NCBI GenBank assembly: GCA_037178675.1
Contig: JAYMGJ010000508.1
Location: forward strand, 1-64,000
Direction: 5' to 3'
Origin: Scleroderma bovista
Taxonomy: Eukaryota > Basidiomycota > Agaricomycetes > Boletales > Sclerodermataceae
Length of the DNA stretch: 64,000 nt
Each line of letters begins with the position of its first letter. The stretch's first letter is position 1. This document shows positions 31,240-38,800 of this stretch, one piece after another. The notes under the pieces were generated by a model. That model was not told the origin of the DNA and did no database searches. It saw nothing but the letters and a program-made list of their open reading frames with translations. Position numbers and translations under genes: made by a program.

Positions 31240-31572
31240 ATTATTTGTGGCAGCCTAACGTCTTTCGTGTGATGCCGTCGACGTGCAGTGTGCGGTGTGC
31301 AGCGTTGCAGGAACGGGGGGCCAAGGGACGACAGTGTTTGGGATCAGGCTTGCCAATGCATGCGGTGAAAAATTTGGCACAAGGCGACCACGTAAGCGTG
31401 ATTACTATACAAGATTGCTAATTGGCTTATTCGAATGCATCACTCCTCCCTCCCATCTCCTCAAAAAATCGACCGCCTCATGTCTGATGCCTGGGGATAG
31501 TAGTAAATGGTAAGTCACTTGTTGCGTGTACAAGTACCCTTTTTGAGCAATACCGTTGACATTACAGTAGAG

Positions 31573-32683
31573 TCACCGCGTCTTCAACATGGCTTGGTTC
31601 CTGCAAGTTTTCGAGCAAAAGTAATCGGCGTCACTCTGCGGATAGCGCTTGCACAAGATACAGGGGGCCTTCAATTTCAGTGTGACGGATTCCCTGTTCA
31701 ATTTCGACCGACGTTTTCCCCCCGGCCCAATCAATACCAGGATGGAAGAGAGAGTGGTTTGTTTTTTGGGACTCACTCTCGGTGCTTGATGGAACAGTAA
31801 CCCGTGCTGATACCGGTTTTGTCAACGTGAACGGGTTTTCCACAGTGCGGAATGGCACATGTAGCAGCAGGCTTTGCGGCGGGTACATTTGTCTTTCCTG
31901 CTTTTGTGGTCGCCGGGGGAGGCGCCAGAAAAGGAGCACTTCGGGCGGCTGGCTCTTCTTCCGAGTCCGTCGGGTAGGCACTCAGGTCCGTCTCCTCCCC
32001 CTCGTCGACTTCATCATCAGATGCAGAATCGCTCGGCGGATAATCAGAAGAATCATCATCTGTCATTAATATTCAGTAATGGAAACAAATAATAGCCACC
32101 GGTAAGTCTTTTCTTACCTTGGGTCACAGTCACTTGAGGTTTGGCTTGGGCTGCTTTCTTCACGTTGTGGCCAGAATTATTTTGGGATACATGATGATGC
32201 CGTACGACGTTGGGTAGGTTTGGCTTCGCGGGTTGCTTTCCCTGTACAGCAGTTGCTTGGTTACCTCCCTGAGCGGTGGTTGCCAGCGCTGCACAGGATT
32301 TCGTACAATAATCTGAATTTCTGAACTTGGGCTTCTTTCCACAGTACTGCAGATCGTGCATGTGATCAAAAGTGATAGTAAGTAATGGATCGTGACCTGA
32401 TCGGCACTTTCGACGACTCACAGCGCAGAGGATCGCTTTCTGGGGTGCGTTGGGTGCTGCCAGTGCTCGGTTAGTATGGCCGCCGGAAGGTTGGGCCACA
32501 TTGGGCAGCGAGCTGGCAGCAGCAGGCGTCCGTGCTTGTTTCGCCGCTGCTTGAGATGCACACGTCAAGCCACAATATTTGTGAGTGCCAAATTTCGCTC
32601 TCTTGTGGCAGTTCTACTGTCCCTTTTCAGCTTGGTGCACAAATTACGTAGAAACTGCGCACCTCGCAGTCATTCTGCGCCAT
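31573..32683 (-). CDS. Cys-rich protein with four YCxxxC-type modules; no PARP domain
   Basis: First exon 32683-32663 encodes MAQNDCE; the intron falls right after the Glu codon, exactly as in the PARP-like gene at 34570, showing common origin. Zinc-ribbon-like modules follow: ENCHKRAKFGTHKYCGLTCA; QYCGKKPKFRNSDYCTKSCA; CAIPHCGKP...GYCSIKHRE; CILCKRYPQSDADYFCSKTC. Between them are Ala/Pro/Gln linkers and an acidic stretch (DDDSSDYPPSDSASDDEVDE). Each module has the spacing of a treble-clef zinc site, so DNA, RNA or protein binding is likely. No catalytic domain is visible before Bud20 begins at 31239; the last exon end near 31500 is unresolved. Confidence 0.6.
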
Positions 32684-33335: not shown

Positions 33336-34570
33336 TCATTTCTCCCTGGTATACATCACAACGTATCTAGGATTGATAGCGGCCGAATCTCGGACTACCA
33401 CTAGGTCGTCCATCAGAATCTGGGGGGAAGGGCTTCCATCAGCAGATAGAAGCGTAGGGTTTGGGTCAACTAACTGAGTTGTTTTTGTTGGGCAGTTGAG
33501 GTAGGACGACGTCGCATGCAATCATGACTCGATATGGGGAGCTCAAGCATGATGTTGCGTAGCGGTCTGCTCGAGAGGGGTTGGTGCAAGAGTAGAGGCC
33601 ATTCCCATGACTATATGCGCGGATACAGTAAGTTGGCCCTCAGTGAGTTGCCTCAGGTATACGACACACGCACCGTCCCTTGTTATGTGGAGCACCGAAT
33701 GCCACGCCCTTGAAAGCGGACTTGATAATGTTGCAGATACCGCACGAGGACCATGTGCAAAGAGCGGTTCCTTTGGTGCCCATGTCACACATGCATTGCG
33801 AGGCGTGGAATGTGCGCAGCAGTCGCACGCCCCCGCTCGACTTGAGCTTCTGGCTAATAACCAATAGTACATCATCTGGGGGATAAGCAAGATCGTGGAT
33901 TGGCACTGACGCATAGGATTCCTTTTCAGCGACGATGACAGGGGAATACGATATTTCGAATAACTTCTCGATCGTTGCTGAACCTGCATCTCTCCATCTA
34001 TCGTTCCACTCTCGTTCGACTGGTGGACCCAGTGCATCAGGATCAGCATGCTCGATTCCATCAGATCGCAACCACGCACATTCTCTCCACACGGTGCCCG
34101 ATGCGCTGATATCGTACATGTGCAATTCATCGGCCGCCTTGAACTGTGTGCATCTGGCGCACATCTGCCCGCTGGCCCCACCCTGGGGTAGTACTAGTAC
34201 GCTTCTGCACCGGATGCATCCTTTCACGAGCCCGATGTCTACACCCTGCCTGTAGTGCATGGTGAGTAGTACCCCCCACGAGGGGAGAGGACGAGATGCG
34301 CGACGCACTTTGCGTGATCGTCGGAGCAGAAGCCTCGAAGGTTCGGATCCTCCGCATTGTTGTTACAGCCCCTGATCTTACAAGGGGGGGATTTCGATTT
34401 TTTGGTGAGAGCAGCGCAGGTCCTACCGCAATACGAGTGTGTCACGCCCGAGATGTCTACGTACTTGGCTTTGATACCACAGACCTACCGTCCGCGTATT
34501 AGTATGCAGTCAGCACCGTGGGATGAGTTCGCACCTCGCACAAGTTACTAGCCTTGCGTGGAGAAGACAT
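33336..34570 (-). CDS. PARP-like ADP-ribosyltransferase with Cys-rich N-terminus
   Basis: Exons 34570-34535, 34484-34309, 34249 to about 33674, from 33610, then the last ending 33336. The first intron (50 nt) has a perfect TACTAAT branch site. N-terminal modules: CEVCGIKAKYVD...THSYCGRTCA, PCKIRGCNNNAEDPNLRGFC, and CIRC...MCARC. The C-terminal half matches fungal PARP-fold proteins: FHASQCMCDMG (triad His), CTWSSCGICNIIKSAFKGVA, HGNGLYSCTNPSRADRYATS (triad Tyr), and DDLVVVRDSAAINPRYVVMY. The third triad position, Glu in PARP1, reads Asp here (DDLVVV, where relatives have DELVV). Expected chemistry is transfer of ADP-ribose from NAD+. The intron between the last two exons appears very short (34-37 nt) and is provisional. 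Divergent from a NADAR gene 142 bp away. Confidence 0.75.
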
Positions 34571-34712
34571 CCTCGGTGGTGTGTTGTTGGGCGGCACCAC
34601 GTGTTTGCCACACCCTCGGAGGTCGTCGCCTCGGGGATGCAACGTGGTCGCGCCATGCACCCGAGCGTTGCATCATAAGAACAAGGGAAATTCATTGAAC
34701 CCGCATAGAACA
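34571..34712. promoter_or_regulatory. Shared divergent promoter of the PARP-like and NADAR genes
   Basis: Only 142 bp separate the two start codons on opposite strands, so the pair must share upstream regulatory sequence. It contains a CACGTG E-box-like hexamer near 34598. No clear TATA box. Confidence 0.55.
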
Positions 34713-35713
34713 ATGCCATTGACACCATCGATACTAGGAACTCGCACACACAACAGTGCCCCGTCTCGGTCTGCAACGCCGTCAACATACCAGGTCGATA
34801 TCGTACAGACTATGCGCGTCACGTCGGATGAGCCACTGACATCCGGCACGATCGACCAGATCAAGAAGCGTCTCGAGAGAGTGCTTCATCATGATCTCGG
34901 TGGATACACGTCAGGGGATGAAACCAAGCTAAGCATCACTCAGACGGGTTTGAACGTCGTGAGGGCAGCAGGGAGCCGTGACCGGACACTCTCATCCCCG
35001 CCCCCACCATCGCGGGCTCCGAAGACTGTGGGGGCCCGCCCAGTCCCAGCTGCGCCTCAGTCGCCGAAGCGCATCCTGTTTTACCATGCTCACGATCCAC
35101 ACTACGGCTTCACCAACTTCTCATCGGACCCTGTCGAATACCAGGGTAAAATATACCCTACAAGCGAACATCTGTTCCAATCACTAAAGGTGAGCAGATA
35201 TAGAGGTATCGCATTCCGAACCTAACAGTGCGTGCAATACATAGTTTCTACCTCACCGCCCAGAGCTCGCAGAACACATGAGAACATGCTCCCAACGACC
35301 ACGCGCCGTGTTCGATGAAGCCCACAGGTTTAGTCCCGAGGCCCGTCCAGACTGGCTCAAAGTCAGAATCGACATGGTGCGTCGTTTGGATTATTATGGG
35401 CGGCCCATCATGATGTTTTATACAGATGGATTTGGCACTATGGCATAAATTCACGCAGAACACGCACCTCAAGGACGAGCTTCTCTCCACGGGCGATGCT
35501 GAGCTCGTCGAGGTAAGCCGCACTGATGATCACTGCCGTTATCGAAGCTCACCGACAAATACATAGGACTCGGACAAGGACGCATTCTGGGGTGTTGGTC
35601 CTGACGGAAAGGGGGAGAACCAGCTTGGAAAAGCGTTGCAGAGGCTCAGAACAAAGCTGCGGGACGTGGAAATGGGTCGAGCCAAGACTGCTATGACAAG
35701 AATTCATCGATAA
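34713..35713 (+). CDS. NADAR-family protein (YbiA-like fold)
   Basis: Four exons (34713-35189, 35245-35376, 35426-35512, 35567-35713) close in phase and give 280 residues. The first 120 are a variable N-terminus; the NADAR domain starts at ILFYHAHDPHYGFTNFSSDP and includes YPTSEHLFQSLKF, then RPDWLKVRIDMMDLALWHKF, and finally FWGVGPDGKGENQLGKALQR. The YPTSEHxFQ and WGxGxxGxNxLG motifs are the family signatures. NADAR proteins act as N-glycosidases on riboflavin intermediates (YbiA) or, in systems paired with ADP-ribosyltransferases, as ADP-ribosyl hydrolases (established for some bacterial DarT partners). The neighbour across a 142-bp gap being a PARP-like enzyme makes the second role plausible here; that is inference. 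Confidence 0.88.
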
Positions 35714-35888: not shown

Positions 35889-38800
35889 CTACACAAGACC
35901 AACAAAACTGTTTCCACAGAAGAGACAGCGTTCGACGGCTTCCAATAGCTCCTTCACAATCCAGCTCCGTGCTGCAACGGGCATCCAACTATCATCATCC
36001 TTGGCCTGGCTCTGTGACACGGGCAGCAACGCCTTGCGGCTACATCCAATGCAGGTTCGAACCATCGAAGTCGATAAAATGAAAGACGTCACCGAGCAAC
36101 GAGCTAGATAGAACGAGGAAGAAGAAAAAGGCAATAAACCCACACGTTTTCGTACAAGTGGTCCCCACCGTGGGGCGTCCACAAAACGAAGCAAACTGAG
36201 CCCACTCACCCCAGGTATGGCCATTCAAACACGTCGCCTGGGTGATGTCCTGCAAAGGCACTCCGATGTGGCAGGCTGGACACACTTCGTGCAGACCTGC
36301 TATGTTGGGATCGATCTCGACCACCGCTTTCACCCTGTCCGACAAGGCTTGGGCCTCGCTAGATAGATCGGGAGGAGAACCGGGAAGAAGGGACTGGACT
36401 ACTACTCTCAGCACGAATGGAATATCGGCCGCTGCGGTCACATTGACGAAATTATGAATCAGCTTCGCCTCGTTCACATCGTGTCACAAGGGGAAGGGGA
36501 AGGGGGGGACATACGAGTGAGTGCCATGACAATGGCTGCAAGGTGACGAACCATGGTGCGTAGCACGCGATGAGATATTTCAGCCAGGTATTGCTGGGCG
36601 ACCTTGCCGCATTCAATGCGCATGTGTGGATCTTCACACAGTTTCTAAGTATTTGGGAGGATTAGGGCGATGTTGTCGAGTCACCCCCAACATCTACCCA
36701 CCCAGCAGCCATCCACAAGCGATAAACGCATTTGGAGCTGAAGCAAGCTATCCCAGCCGGAAAAATGCGTCTTGAAACTTGTGCGTAAATGCGACTTGCC
36801 ATCTTCGCGAAAACCGCCGTGGCCACATTCAGGAACGACAATGGCCCTCGAATCGTCCGGTGGCAGAGCTTGAGCCACTATTTCCAACAAACGAGGGCAC
36901 AGCTGCGCAAACCGGCCAGTATTGCCCAAGTGCAAAAGTGTTGGCCGGAGCAAGTGCATTGGAGCTGCCCTCGTCGCTGTGCATACGGATGACGCGTTAG
37001 TGCCCACGCATGTATTGTGAACAGGGAAGGGGGGCCAGCCAAAAGACCCGTCATTACCGCAATGAGATCCAGCCAGTGTTTCCTGCGCCATCCTCAAGAT
37101 CGTCTCATCATCAGGTGTCCAAAACGGTGCAGTGAGAAGGACGCATTCATGCTTCGCTTCGTGCTTGTAACTAAAGTCGGACGGTCTTAGTACCCTGTTA
37201 TACAATTATTAAAACGCTGTGGTTAGCTATATTTCACAGCCCCCCCCCAAGGAGCACGAATGTCCCAAAAAAAAAGAACATGGCGGTTCACGCACTCATA
37301 GATCCAGGTCAAGGTGGAGCAAGCATCATACGAAACCGAACCACTGGTTCGGTTGACATCTGCATAGTCCACACCAGCATCTGCACTGGCACGAACGAAA
37401 AATGCACGAGAAGCCTGTGTGAGTGCTTCAGACGTGATGGTCTCTGCACCCTCCACTGGTGAAAATGACGGGGCCACACAGGAAGGTGGCATCCAAGAGG
37501 GCTCAACCGAGAAGCTATGGATCGCGTGCAAGGATCCGTCCGAAAATGTGATGAGGAGGATATCGCGGTGTGTCATGTATGACAAGCCCGAAACGGTTTC
37601 TAAAGAGGACGATCCGGCCGATGATTTTTGCGTCTGGACCAGGAGTGTCCTTGGTCCGTGCCAGTGAGTGGGGGACGACGGGAGGGACCAGAGGTGCACG
37701 ATGCCTGGCTTGGCCACAACGAGAATCGGCTGTGGCCGGTCATGAGGAGTGTACAACTTTTTTTTTTCAGACGAGAGGGGCTTACATTTCGGCCTGGAAC
37801 GTTTATCCATTGGAGGGCAGTGATGGCACGTTTGTCGGGAACGAACGCGAGTTCTCGCAGTGGCTCGACACTAACATGTATGTTCTCGTTGCAGTCATAT
37901 TCGGCAACAAAGCCTGTAATGGCGGGGGGCACCTCGAGCATTTGAGCCACTCGAAGCAGGCCGACACCGCCATCCGCCACCCCGTATGCCAGCATCGCTG
38001 CGCCTGGGTCAAAGATTGTGGTCAGGGTTGATCAGCAAGTACGACGTAGAACAGGCGAATCTGACAGTGATTTGCTTCTATCGAGGCCCACGGCGACCAC
38101 GCCAGGTGCGTGATCCATTGCTCGCTCAGCTTCGACAGCGTGATGGGTTCTATTCGCGGTCCCTCGCTTTGATAGCCGCAAAATCTAAAAAATTCGGTCG
38201 GTTTCCGATCCAACATACGAGGTTGGCCAAATGACTACACTACCTGTACAGCGCAATCGTACCGCCACGGCTGCCGAGAGCGAGGATGGACGCGTCGACT
38301 GATGGAGTGGGGAGGACGCCAAAATCAGGTTGACGAGACCATGAAATACCTGGCGGGCACAAATCAGGTTGTATATCCACATGAGAAGCAAAGGGTGCAA
38401 CACTTACTAGTCGTTTGGATTTTCAAAACAGCCAATGCGTCCACTTCGCCGTGGTGTGTCAAGTTATCGACAAGCCAATCGGTCAGGTTGGCAATCTAGA
38501 AATAGTCATAGGATCTTTTTTTTCTTCTTGCATTGTCACTCAGAGAAACTTGCCATTGCCCACTCGCCATTGAGGTGGTTTTTCGTCGCTTCCCAGAGCG
38601 TGACGTCATGCACGGTGAGCACCGCGAGAATACATCTACGTGCACATATGTATATGCGTCCGTTGACCCAATGATCTCCCCAGTTAGCGCGATGTAGAGA
38701 GAAGTCAATACGCATTACGTACCTCCCGCGGCTGGACAGTGCGCTCGGAGAACACGCTACAGCACGAACAGAAACATCCAGCGATCCGAGCGTGATAGCT

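What the first reader, a model, noticed from the sequence alone, without database searches (positions are those of the whole stretch)
33336..35713. Divergent PARP-like transferase / NADAR pair: candidate ADP-ribosylation write-and-erase module
A Cys-rich PARP-fold protein (minus, from 34570) and a NADAR-domain protein (plus, from 34713) start 142 bp apart and must share control sequence. In bacteria some NADAR proteins are partners of DarT-type ADP-ribosyltransferases and remove the mark; a eukaryotic PARP/NADAR divergent pair would be a fungal counterpart and, to my knowledge, is not described. Adjacency is seen directly; family chemistry is established; the functional link is inference.
Basis: partly seen in the sequence, partly recalled or inferred. 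Interest (0 to 1): 0.85.

Follow-up and report, generated by a model that had tools for sequence, protein, structure and literature searches.

The report
Recurrent fungal PARP–NADAR gene pair
In mushroom-forming fungi a gene for an enzyme that probably attaches ADP-ribose tags sits beside, and here starts back-to-back with, a gene for an enzyme of the kind that removes such tags; the pairing recurs in many species, which points to a write-and-erase system not yet described in fungi as far as I could find.

The parts
33336..34570 (-). Cys-rich PARP-fold gene, 296 aa, seven exons: 34570-34535, 34484-34309, 34249-34080, 34019-33911, 33853-33674, 33610-33475, 33419-33336
   Evidence: spliced model equals P0001 letter for letter; PARP fold
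34309..34570 (-). first two N-terminal Cys clusters of the PARP (C11-x2-C14-x16-C31-x3-C35; C47-x4-C52-x12-C65-x3-H69), probable zinc modules; a third (C82, C85, C101, C104) follows in the next exon
   Evidence: C14, C31, C35 invariant and C11, C47, C52, C65, H69 at 90% or more in the 40 homologues aligned; positions; zinc binding inferred
33336..34131 (-). PARP catalytic domain (residues ~111-296): H180, Y230, D274 at the H-Y-E triad places, and an inserted Cys cluster C184, C186, C196, C201, C204
34571..34712 (.). 142-bp gap between the two start codons; shared 5' control region
   Evidence: both proteins on one public 2283-nt contig that must be spliced
34713..35713 (+). NADAR gene, 280 aa, exons 34713-35189, 35245-35376, 35426-35512, 35567-35713
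   Evidence: Pfam NADAR E 4.6e-35
35079..35662 (+). NADAR domain (residues ~123-264); E152, K159, R187, W196, R200, E232, D237, W240 match E43, K50, R79, W89, R93, E125, D130, W133 of the oomycete NADAR
   Evidence: fold match to 2B3W and 8BAU
31570..32683 (-). downstream neighbour: Cys-rich-only gene (241 aa as modelled, last exon uncertain) with the same C-x2-C...YC-x3-C module; its two largest open stretches gave no Pfam match
   Evidence: that it belongs to the system is tentative

Best explanation
The two genes form a two-component reversible ADP-ribosylation module. The PARP-fold protein binds its target through its zinc-type Cys modules and uses NAD+ (H180 and Y230 hold NAD+, D274 takes the place of the catalytic Glu) to attach single ADP-ribose units. 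The NADAR protein removes them by N-glycosidic hydrolysis with E152, K159 and E232. The back-to-back promoter keeps writer and eraser in step, so that a potentially harmful mark is always accompanied by its eraser. Because the macromolecular linkage that NADARs have been shown to cut, in the papers read, is ADP-ribose on guanine bases of DNA or RNA, the most likely target is a nucleic acid. Shown: gene structures, residues, joint transcription, recurrent pairing, fusion of the PARP's Cys module to NADAR in two species; folds are predicted models. Inferred: catalytic activity, target, mono-ADP-ribosylation, biological role.
For: Pairing in 25 of 29 named species with both hits, 1.0-1.5 expected: 11 Boletales and 14 Agaricales (order looked up for three of them; the rest recalled). 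Tight cases: contigs of 8299 bp (Astraeus, ID866_8125/8126) and 8073 bp (Schizophyllum fasciatum), consecutive numbers in Suillus spraguei and Mycena crocata. A public contig with both that must be spliced; a second short one of 2081 nt (P0016/P0090). Second cluster on C346 with an intact 411-aa PARP (Pfam 49.8 bits, H-Y-E) divergent from a NADAR. Cys module fused to NADAR in Stereum and Collybia. NADAR residues kept and fold nearest YbiA and the ADP-ribose-bound oomycete NADAR. The one NADAR found in this genome without a Cys-rich neighbour (C131) has lost both key Glu. Of 27 paired PARPs, 21 keep H-Y-E or H-Y-D. NADARs cut guanine-ADP-ribose in DNA (PMC11543638, sections 11-12 read) and RNA (PMC11833690, passages).
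Against: No activity data. The third triad residue here is Asp, not Glu; 29 of 101 family members show neither acid there (4 of them gaps) and 13 of 101 lack the His; of the 27 paired PARPs, five depart from H-Y-E/D (both Schizophyllum have F for H) and one was too short to score. Orientation elsewhere not read. 47 of 76 named species in the NADAR table have no hit in the word-limited PARP searches, e.g. Boletus, Serpula, Phlebopus, so NADAR may be kept alone. YbiA-type NADARs also act on riboflavin intermediates.
Confidence: 0.6

Rival explanations
1. Metabolic NADAR: the NADAR is a riboflavin-pathway damage-control N-glycosidase (YbiA type), and the PARP beside it is unrelated; the pair shares only a promoter and old gene order.
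For: Glu at the E125 place makes it YbiA-type; PMC11543638 (passages) says YbiA-like members seem closely related to flavin-biosynthetic NADARs of plants and fungi.
Against: A second PARP/NADAR cluster in the same genome; the PARP's Cys module fused to NADAR in two species; pairing across two orders. A bacterial YbiA-type NADAR also serves as antitoxin to an ART (PMC11125620, section 7 read).
Confidence: 0.2
2. Non-writing PARP: the PARP-fold protein is a degenerate or binding-only ADP-ribosyl/NAD+ sensor, and NADAR clears free ADP-ribose derivatives or marks made by another enzyme (the canonical-looking PARP on C732, or a foreign toxin).
For: Asp in place of Glu here; loss of triad residues in part of the family; a canonical-looking PARP exists elsewhere in the genome.
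Against: 21 of 27 paired PARPs keep H-Y-E or H-Y-D; each of the five insert Cys is in 100 or 101 of 101, so the domain is under constraint; the C346 PARP keeps H-Y-E.
Confidence: 0.15
3. Protein, not nucleic-acid, target: a write-and-erase pair as proposed, but the PARP marks protein side chains and the fungal NADAR has gained activity on them.
For: PARP-fold relatives nearest in structure (tankyrase, PARP10, PARP14) mark proteins (recalled); the Cys modules could be protein-binding.
Against: In the parts read of PMC11543638, PMC11125620 and PMC11833690 the NADAR activity shown is on guanine bases of DNA or RNA; removal from protein is not reported there.
Confidence: 0.25

Closest known systems
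DarT1-NADAR (DarTG1) toxin-antitoxin system of bacteria
   Same: ART-fold writer gene beside a NADAR gene; the NADAR reverses guanine ADP-ribosylation (PMC11543638, sections and passages read).
YarT-YbiA pair of myxobacteria
   Same: YbiA-type NADAR encoded beside an ART (PMC11125620, sections 5 and 7 read, passages of section 6).
   Different: YarT is described there as a small stand-alone ART of a few myxobacteria; here the writer is a PARP with zinc-type modules, paired in two fungal orders. No sequence comparison with YarT was made.
Known fungal PARPs, Clades 1 and 6
   Same: PARP catalytic fold; Clade 6 (PARP6/8) has a cysteine-rich region with CX2CX9-19CX4C (PMC4245714, passage).
   Different: No WGR, PRD or UBCc match in Pfam; Cys spacing CX2CX16CX3C; extra five-Cys insert after the His. 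A 2010 survey (PMC2964712, passages) lists only Clades 1 and 6 in fungi.
Tankyrase catalytic domain
   Different: 18% identity; Cys insert lies after the His motif, not after the Tyr motif (place in tankyrase recalled). By sequence profile the only PDB hits at E up to 1 were PARP4 and PARP13 (E 0.85, 0.95).
Stand-alone YbiA/DUF1768 proteins of fungi
   Same: NADAR domain.
   Different: Here tied to a PARP gene; in C131 of this genome the unlinked NADAR has lost the key Glu.

Membership tests
NADAR superfamily (PF08719) | profile match above the curated cut-off | tested here: met
   121.7 bits against 35.1
NADAR superfamily (PF08719) | ADP-ribose-binding and catalytic residues E43, K50, R79, W89, R93, E125, D130, W133 (oomycete numbering) | tested here: met
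   all eight in the window protein; in 121 sequences each is kept in 114-120 except R93 (R 47, N 64). K75, Y84 and D86 of the same site are not kept (alignment read by hand)
NADAR, YbiA subfamily | Glu at the E125 place | tested here: met
   E232; 120 of 121 sequences, one gap
NADAR, BC4488 / DarT1-linked subfamily | Asp at the E125 place and the DarT1-specific Lys (K115 of E. coli C7) | tested here: not met
   E232; Asp at the K115/K75 place
NADAR superfamily (PF08719) | guanine-ADP-ribose hydrolysis | not testable with these tools
   needs enzyme assay
PARP / ARTD family | catalytic-domain fold | tested here: met
PARP / ARTD family | Pfam PF00644 above cut-off | tested here: not met
   16.2 bits against 26.7 for this protein; 24 of 40 members scanned match at E up to 0.1, best 5.7e-7; the C346 paralogue passes with 49.8
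PARP / ARTD family | H-Y-E triad | tested here: inconclusive
   H180 and Y230 kept, third place Asp274; family H 88, Y 99, E or D 72 of 101
PARP / ARTD family | ADP-ribosyl transfer | not testable with these tools
   needs enzyme assay
DarT toxin family | DarT profile match | tested here: not met
   only PF00644 matched, E up to 1 (first model) and up to 0.1 (corrected protein); that Pfam holds a DarT model is recalled
Bacterial ART-NADAR toxin-antitoxin system | writer and eraser genes adjacent and recurrent | tested here: met
   adjacent here and on C346; elsewhere by contig only, 25 of 29 species
Bacterial ART-NADAR toxin-antitoxin system | writer toxic alone, relieved by NADAR | not testable with these tools
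   needs expression test
Fungal Clade 1 PARPs | WGR and PARP regulatory domains | tested here: not met
   no such Pfam match
Fungal Clade 6 PARPs (PARP6/8) | UBCc domain in Basidiomycota members; CRR CX2CX9-19CX4C | tested here: not met
   no UBCc match; spacing CX2CX16CX3C
YarT family | sequence relation to YarT | not tested
   no YarT sequence was fetched

The most novel reading that the evidence does not exclude
Mushroom-forming fungi carry their own reversible base ADP-ribosylation of RNA or DNA: a zinc-module PARP marks guanines and a co-transcribed NADAR removes the mark, a eukaryotic counterpart of toxin-antitoxin pairs, used in genome or virus defence or in nuclear conflict between mated partners.
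Probability: 0.28. Interest if true: 0.92.

Novelty: new variant of a known kind. Interest (0 to 1): 0.74.

Why it matters
Authors of a NADAR paper state that the physiological roles of eukaryotic NADARs are unclear (PMC11125620, section 7). A recurrent PARP-NADAR gene pair names a candidate writer for a eukaryotic NADAR and so makes the question directly testable. Coprinopsis cinerea, a laboratory mushroom, holds a PARP of this family with an intact H-Y-E triad (P0177); the Schizophyllum commune copy has F for H and would be a poor test. The family also appears to add a PARP group to the two that a 2010 survey recorded for fungi (PMC2964712, passages).

Tried and rejected
Five-exon model of the PARP gene: rejected after the homologue alignment. 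PARP as DarT relative: no match. Cys-rich modules as zf-FCS/MYM: only 2 of 40 members matched at E up to 0.1, best 0.031. Third Cys-rich gene as a family: a search of the genome with it found only itself and a weak hit on C68 (E 0.335) whose translation looks to me like a retroelement. Other erasers in this genome: one macrodomain locus, no ARH match while 5 of 14 controls rang; the PARG search rang in no control, so it says nothing. C131 NADAR: no PARP in the 8 kb of frames I read; a motif scan of 20 kb gave only isolated, chance-like matches. C84: Cys modules but no PARP match in the genome search or the 20-kb motif scan. Distance-matrix agreement of 27 pairs, r 0.93: expected for any two vertically inherited genes, so not used as proof. 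The fold searches were not used to exclude any family.

Literature: nine answered searches in open-licence PubMed Central only. I saw the listings, passages of PMC9503650, PMC11833690, PMC2964712, PMC4245714 and PMC10789625, and passages plus two sections each of PMC11543638 and PMC11125620; none describes a fungal PARP-NADAR pair. A 2012 study that defined NADAR (De Souza and Aravind, recalled) was not among the listings and could mention one.

Full report
Observation. The window lies in a 52-Mb assembly of 850 contigs; its nearest named homologues are Scleroderma citrinum proteins. On the minus strand the gene from 34570 to 33336 splices into seven exons and a 296-aa protein; its six introns are GT-AG. 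A first model with five exons was wrong in two places, seen when relatives were aligned. The corrected protein is identical, 296 of 296, to a public protein, P0001. On the plus strand the gene from 34713 to 35713 has four exons and 280 aa. The starts are 142 bp apart and the stop-to-stop span is 2378 bp.

Pairing in other fungi. The protein database gives no gene order but gives contig lengths. The PARP searches returned 49 and 116 proteins, partly the same; the NADAR search listed 120 of 622. Of 67 named species in the merged PARP table and 76 in the NADAR table, 29 are in both; in 25 of these a PARP and a NADAR lie on a contig of identical length, which I take as the same contig, against 0.98 (50-Mb genome) to 1.53 (30-Mb genome) species expected under random placement. 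The tail probability printed there (below 1e-38) treats species as independent, which they are not, so it should not be taken literally. By recalled order, 11 are Boletales and 14 Agaricales; three were looked up. Of the four misses, Schizophyllum commune and Abortiporus biennis compare different assemblies by their gene-name prefixes; Mycena filopes and M. metata are misses within one assembly. Thirteen of the 25 are on contigs under 500 kb. Real adjacency is indicated by the 8299-bp contig of Astraeus (genes 8125 and 8126), the 8073-bp contig of Schizophyllum fasciatum, and consecutive numbers in Suillus spraguei (1419140/1419141) and Mycena crocata (1130147/1130148). In the other pairs with two printed numbers these are not consecutive; such numbers need not follow position (recalled). 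PARP-only species (38) cannot be judged because the NADAR list was cut; NADAR-only species (47) may reflect loss of the PARP or the word-based search.

Transcription. P0001 and P0050 (NADAR, 99% identical to the window over 88%) are both on a single contig of 2283 nt from source 'lgn', which I take to be assembled public reads (recalled meaning of the label). Both proteins run to the stop codons seen here, so unspliced they need at least 2372 bases; the spliced length with the gap is 1876. Unless two contigs share that length by chance, the contig must be spliced RNA, joined across the region between the start codons: both genes are transcribed in one sample and their 5' ends meet or overlap. 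A second short contig (2081 nt, P0016 and P0090) comes from another species. This is joint transcription, not a measured co-expression.

The same genome. Four NADAR loci were found: this one (C507), C346, C84 and C131. On C346 an intact 411-aa Cys-rich PARP with H-Y-E (86360-84790, minus; Pfam 49.8 bits) and a broken-looking second PARP (about 88.1-87.3 kb, minus) lie upstream of, and divergent from, a NADAR at about 89.1-89.8 kb (plus). C346 and C84 NADARs (68% identical to each other, 55 and 58% to C507) are each followed on the same strand by two Cys modules of the PARP type. The C131 NADAR has V and Y in place of the two key Glu, and no PARP was seen near it. Searches with either Cys-rich PARP found no further locus, but neither found the other, so their reach is short. 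A canonical-looking PARP is on C732.

Fusion. In Stereum hirsutum (P0237, Russulales) and Collybia nuda (P0112) NADAR proteins carry the PARP's Cys module: two full-motif copies in Stereum plus a third, looser one, and one in Collybia. By that pattern 1 of the 120 listed NADARs has it (P0112; P0237 came from the PARP search). This ties the two enzyme types at the level of domains, whatever the cause of their gene order.

How it most likely works. A PARP-type writer guided by zinc-type modules and a NADAR eraser, transcribed from one divergent promoter. Bacterial and oomycete NADARs cut ADP-ribose from guanine in DNA (PMC11543638), phage NADAR too (PMC11125620), and bacterial and phage NADARs do so in RNA (PMC11833690), so a nucleic-acid target is favoured. 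Asp in the third triad place suggests mono-ADP-ribosylation (inference). Toxicity of an unopposed writer, and a role in defence or conflict, are guesses by analogy with DarT1-NADAR and YarT-YbiA.

Limits. Order and orientation elsewhere were not read; the contig-length test cannot separate close adjacency from loose synteny on long contigs. Of the 27 paired PARPs, 12 read H-Y-E, 9 H-Y-D, one was too short to score, and five depart: Hygrophoropsis (H-Y-G), Leucogyrophana (H-Y-Y), Mycena galericulata (gap), Schizophyllum amplum (F-F-D) and S. fasciatum (F-Y-gap), partly perhaps through wrong gene models. The literature search covers open-licence papers only.

Noticed in passing
window 31570-32683, minus: Cys-rich-only gene directly downstream of the PARP, with two clear and further looser C-x2-C...YC-x3-C modules and an acidic middle; no Pfam match for its two largest open stretches and no other convincing copy found in the genome.
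   Followed up: partly
C346:87300-88100, minus (L019): Second PARP-like gene, apparently partial or broken, between the intact Cys-rich PARP and the NADAR.
   Followed up: partly
C131:151653-153130, minus (L022, L023): NADAR with a long proline-rich front part that has lost both catalytic Glu; probable pseudo-enzyme.
   Followed up: partly
window 36040-37870, minus: Gene with a TFIIIC zinc finger tail-to-tail with the NADAR gene (zf-TFIIIC 28 bits on the 36043-36483 stretch; extent of the gene not worked out); would serve as a synteny control.
   Followed up: no
P0058 (Mycena pura), P0096 (Cyathus striatus): Proteins with two NADAR domains in tandem by eye, on the same contig as a PARP of this family.
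   Followed up: no
G000: Four NADAR loci against one macrodomain locus and no ARH match in the assembly: NADAR is the most numerous ADP-ribose eraser type among those searched.
   Followed up: partly
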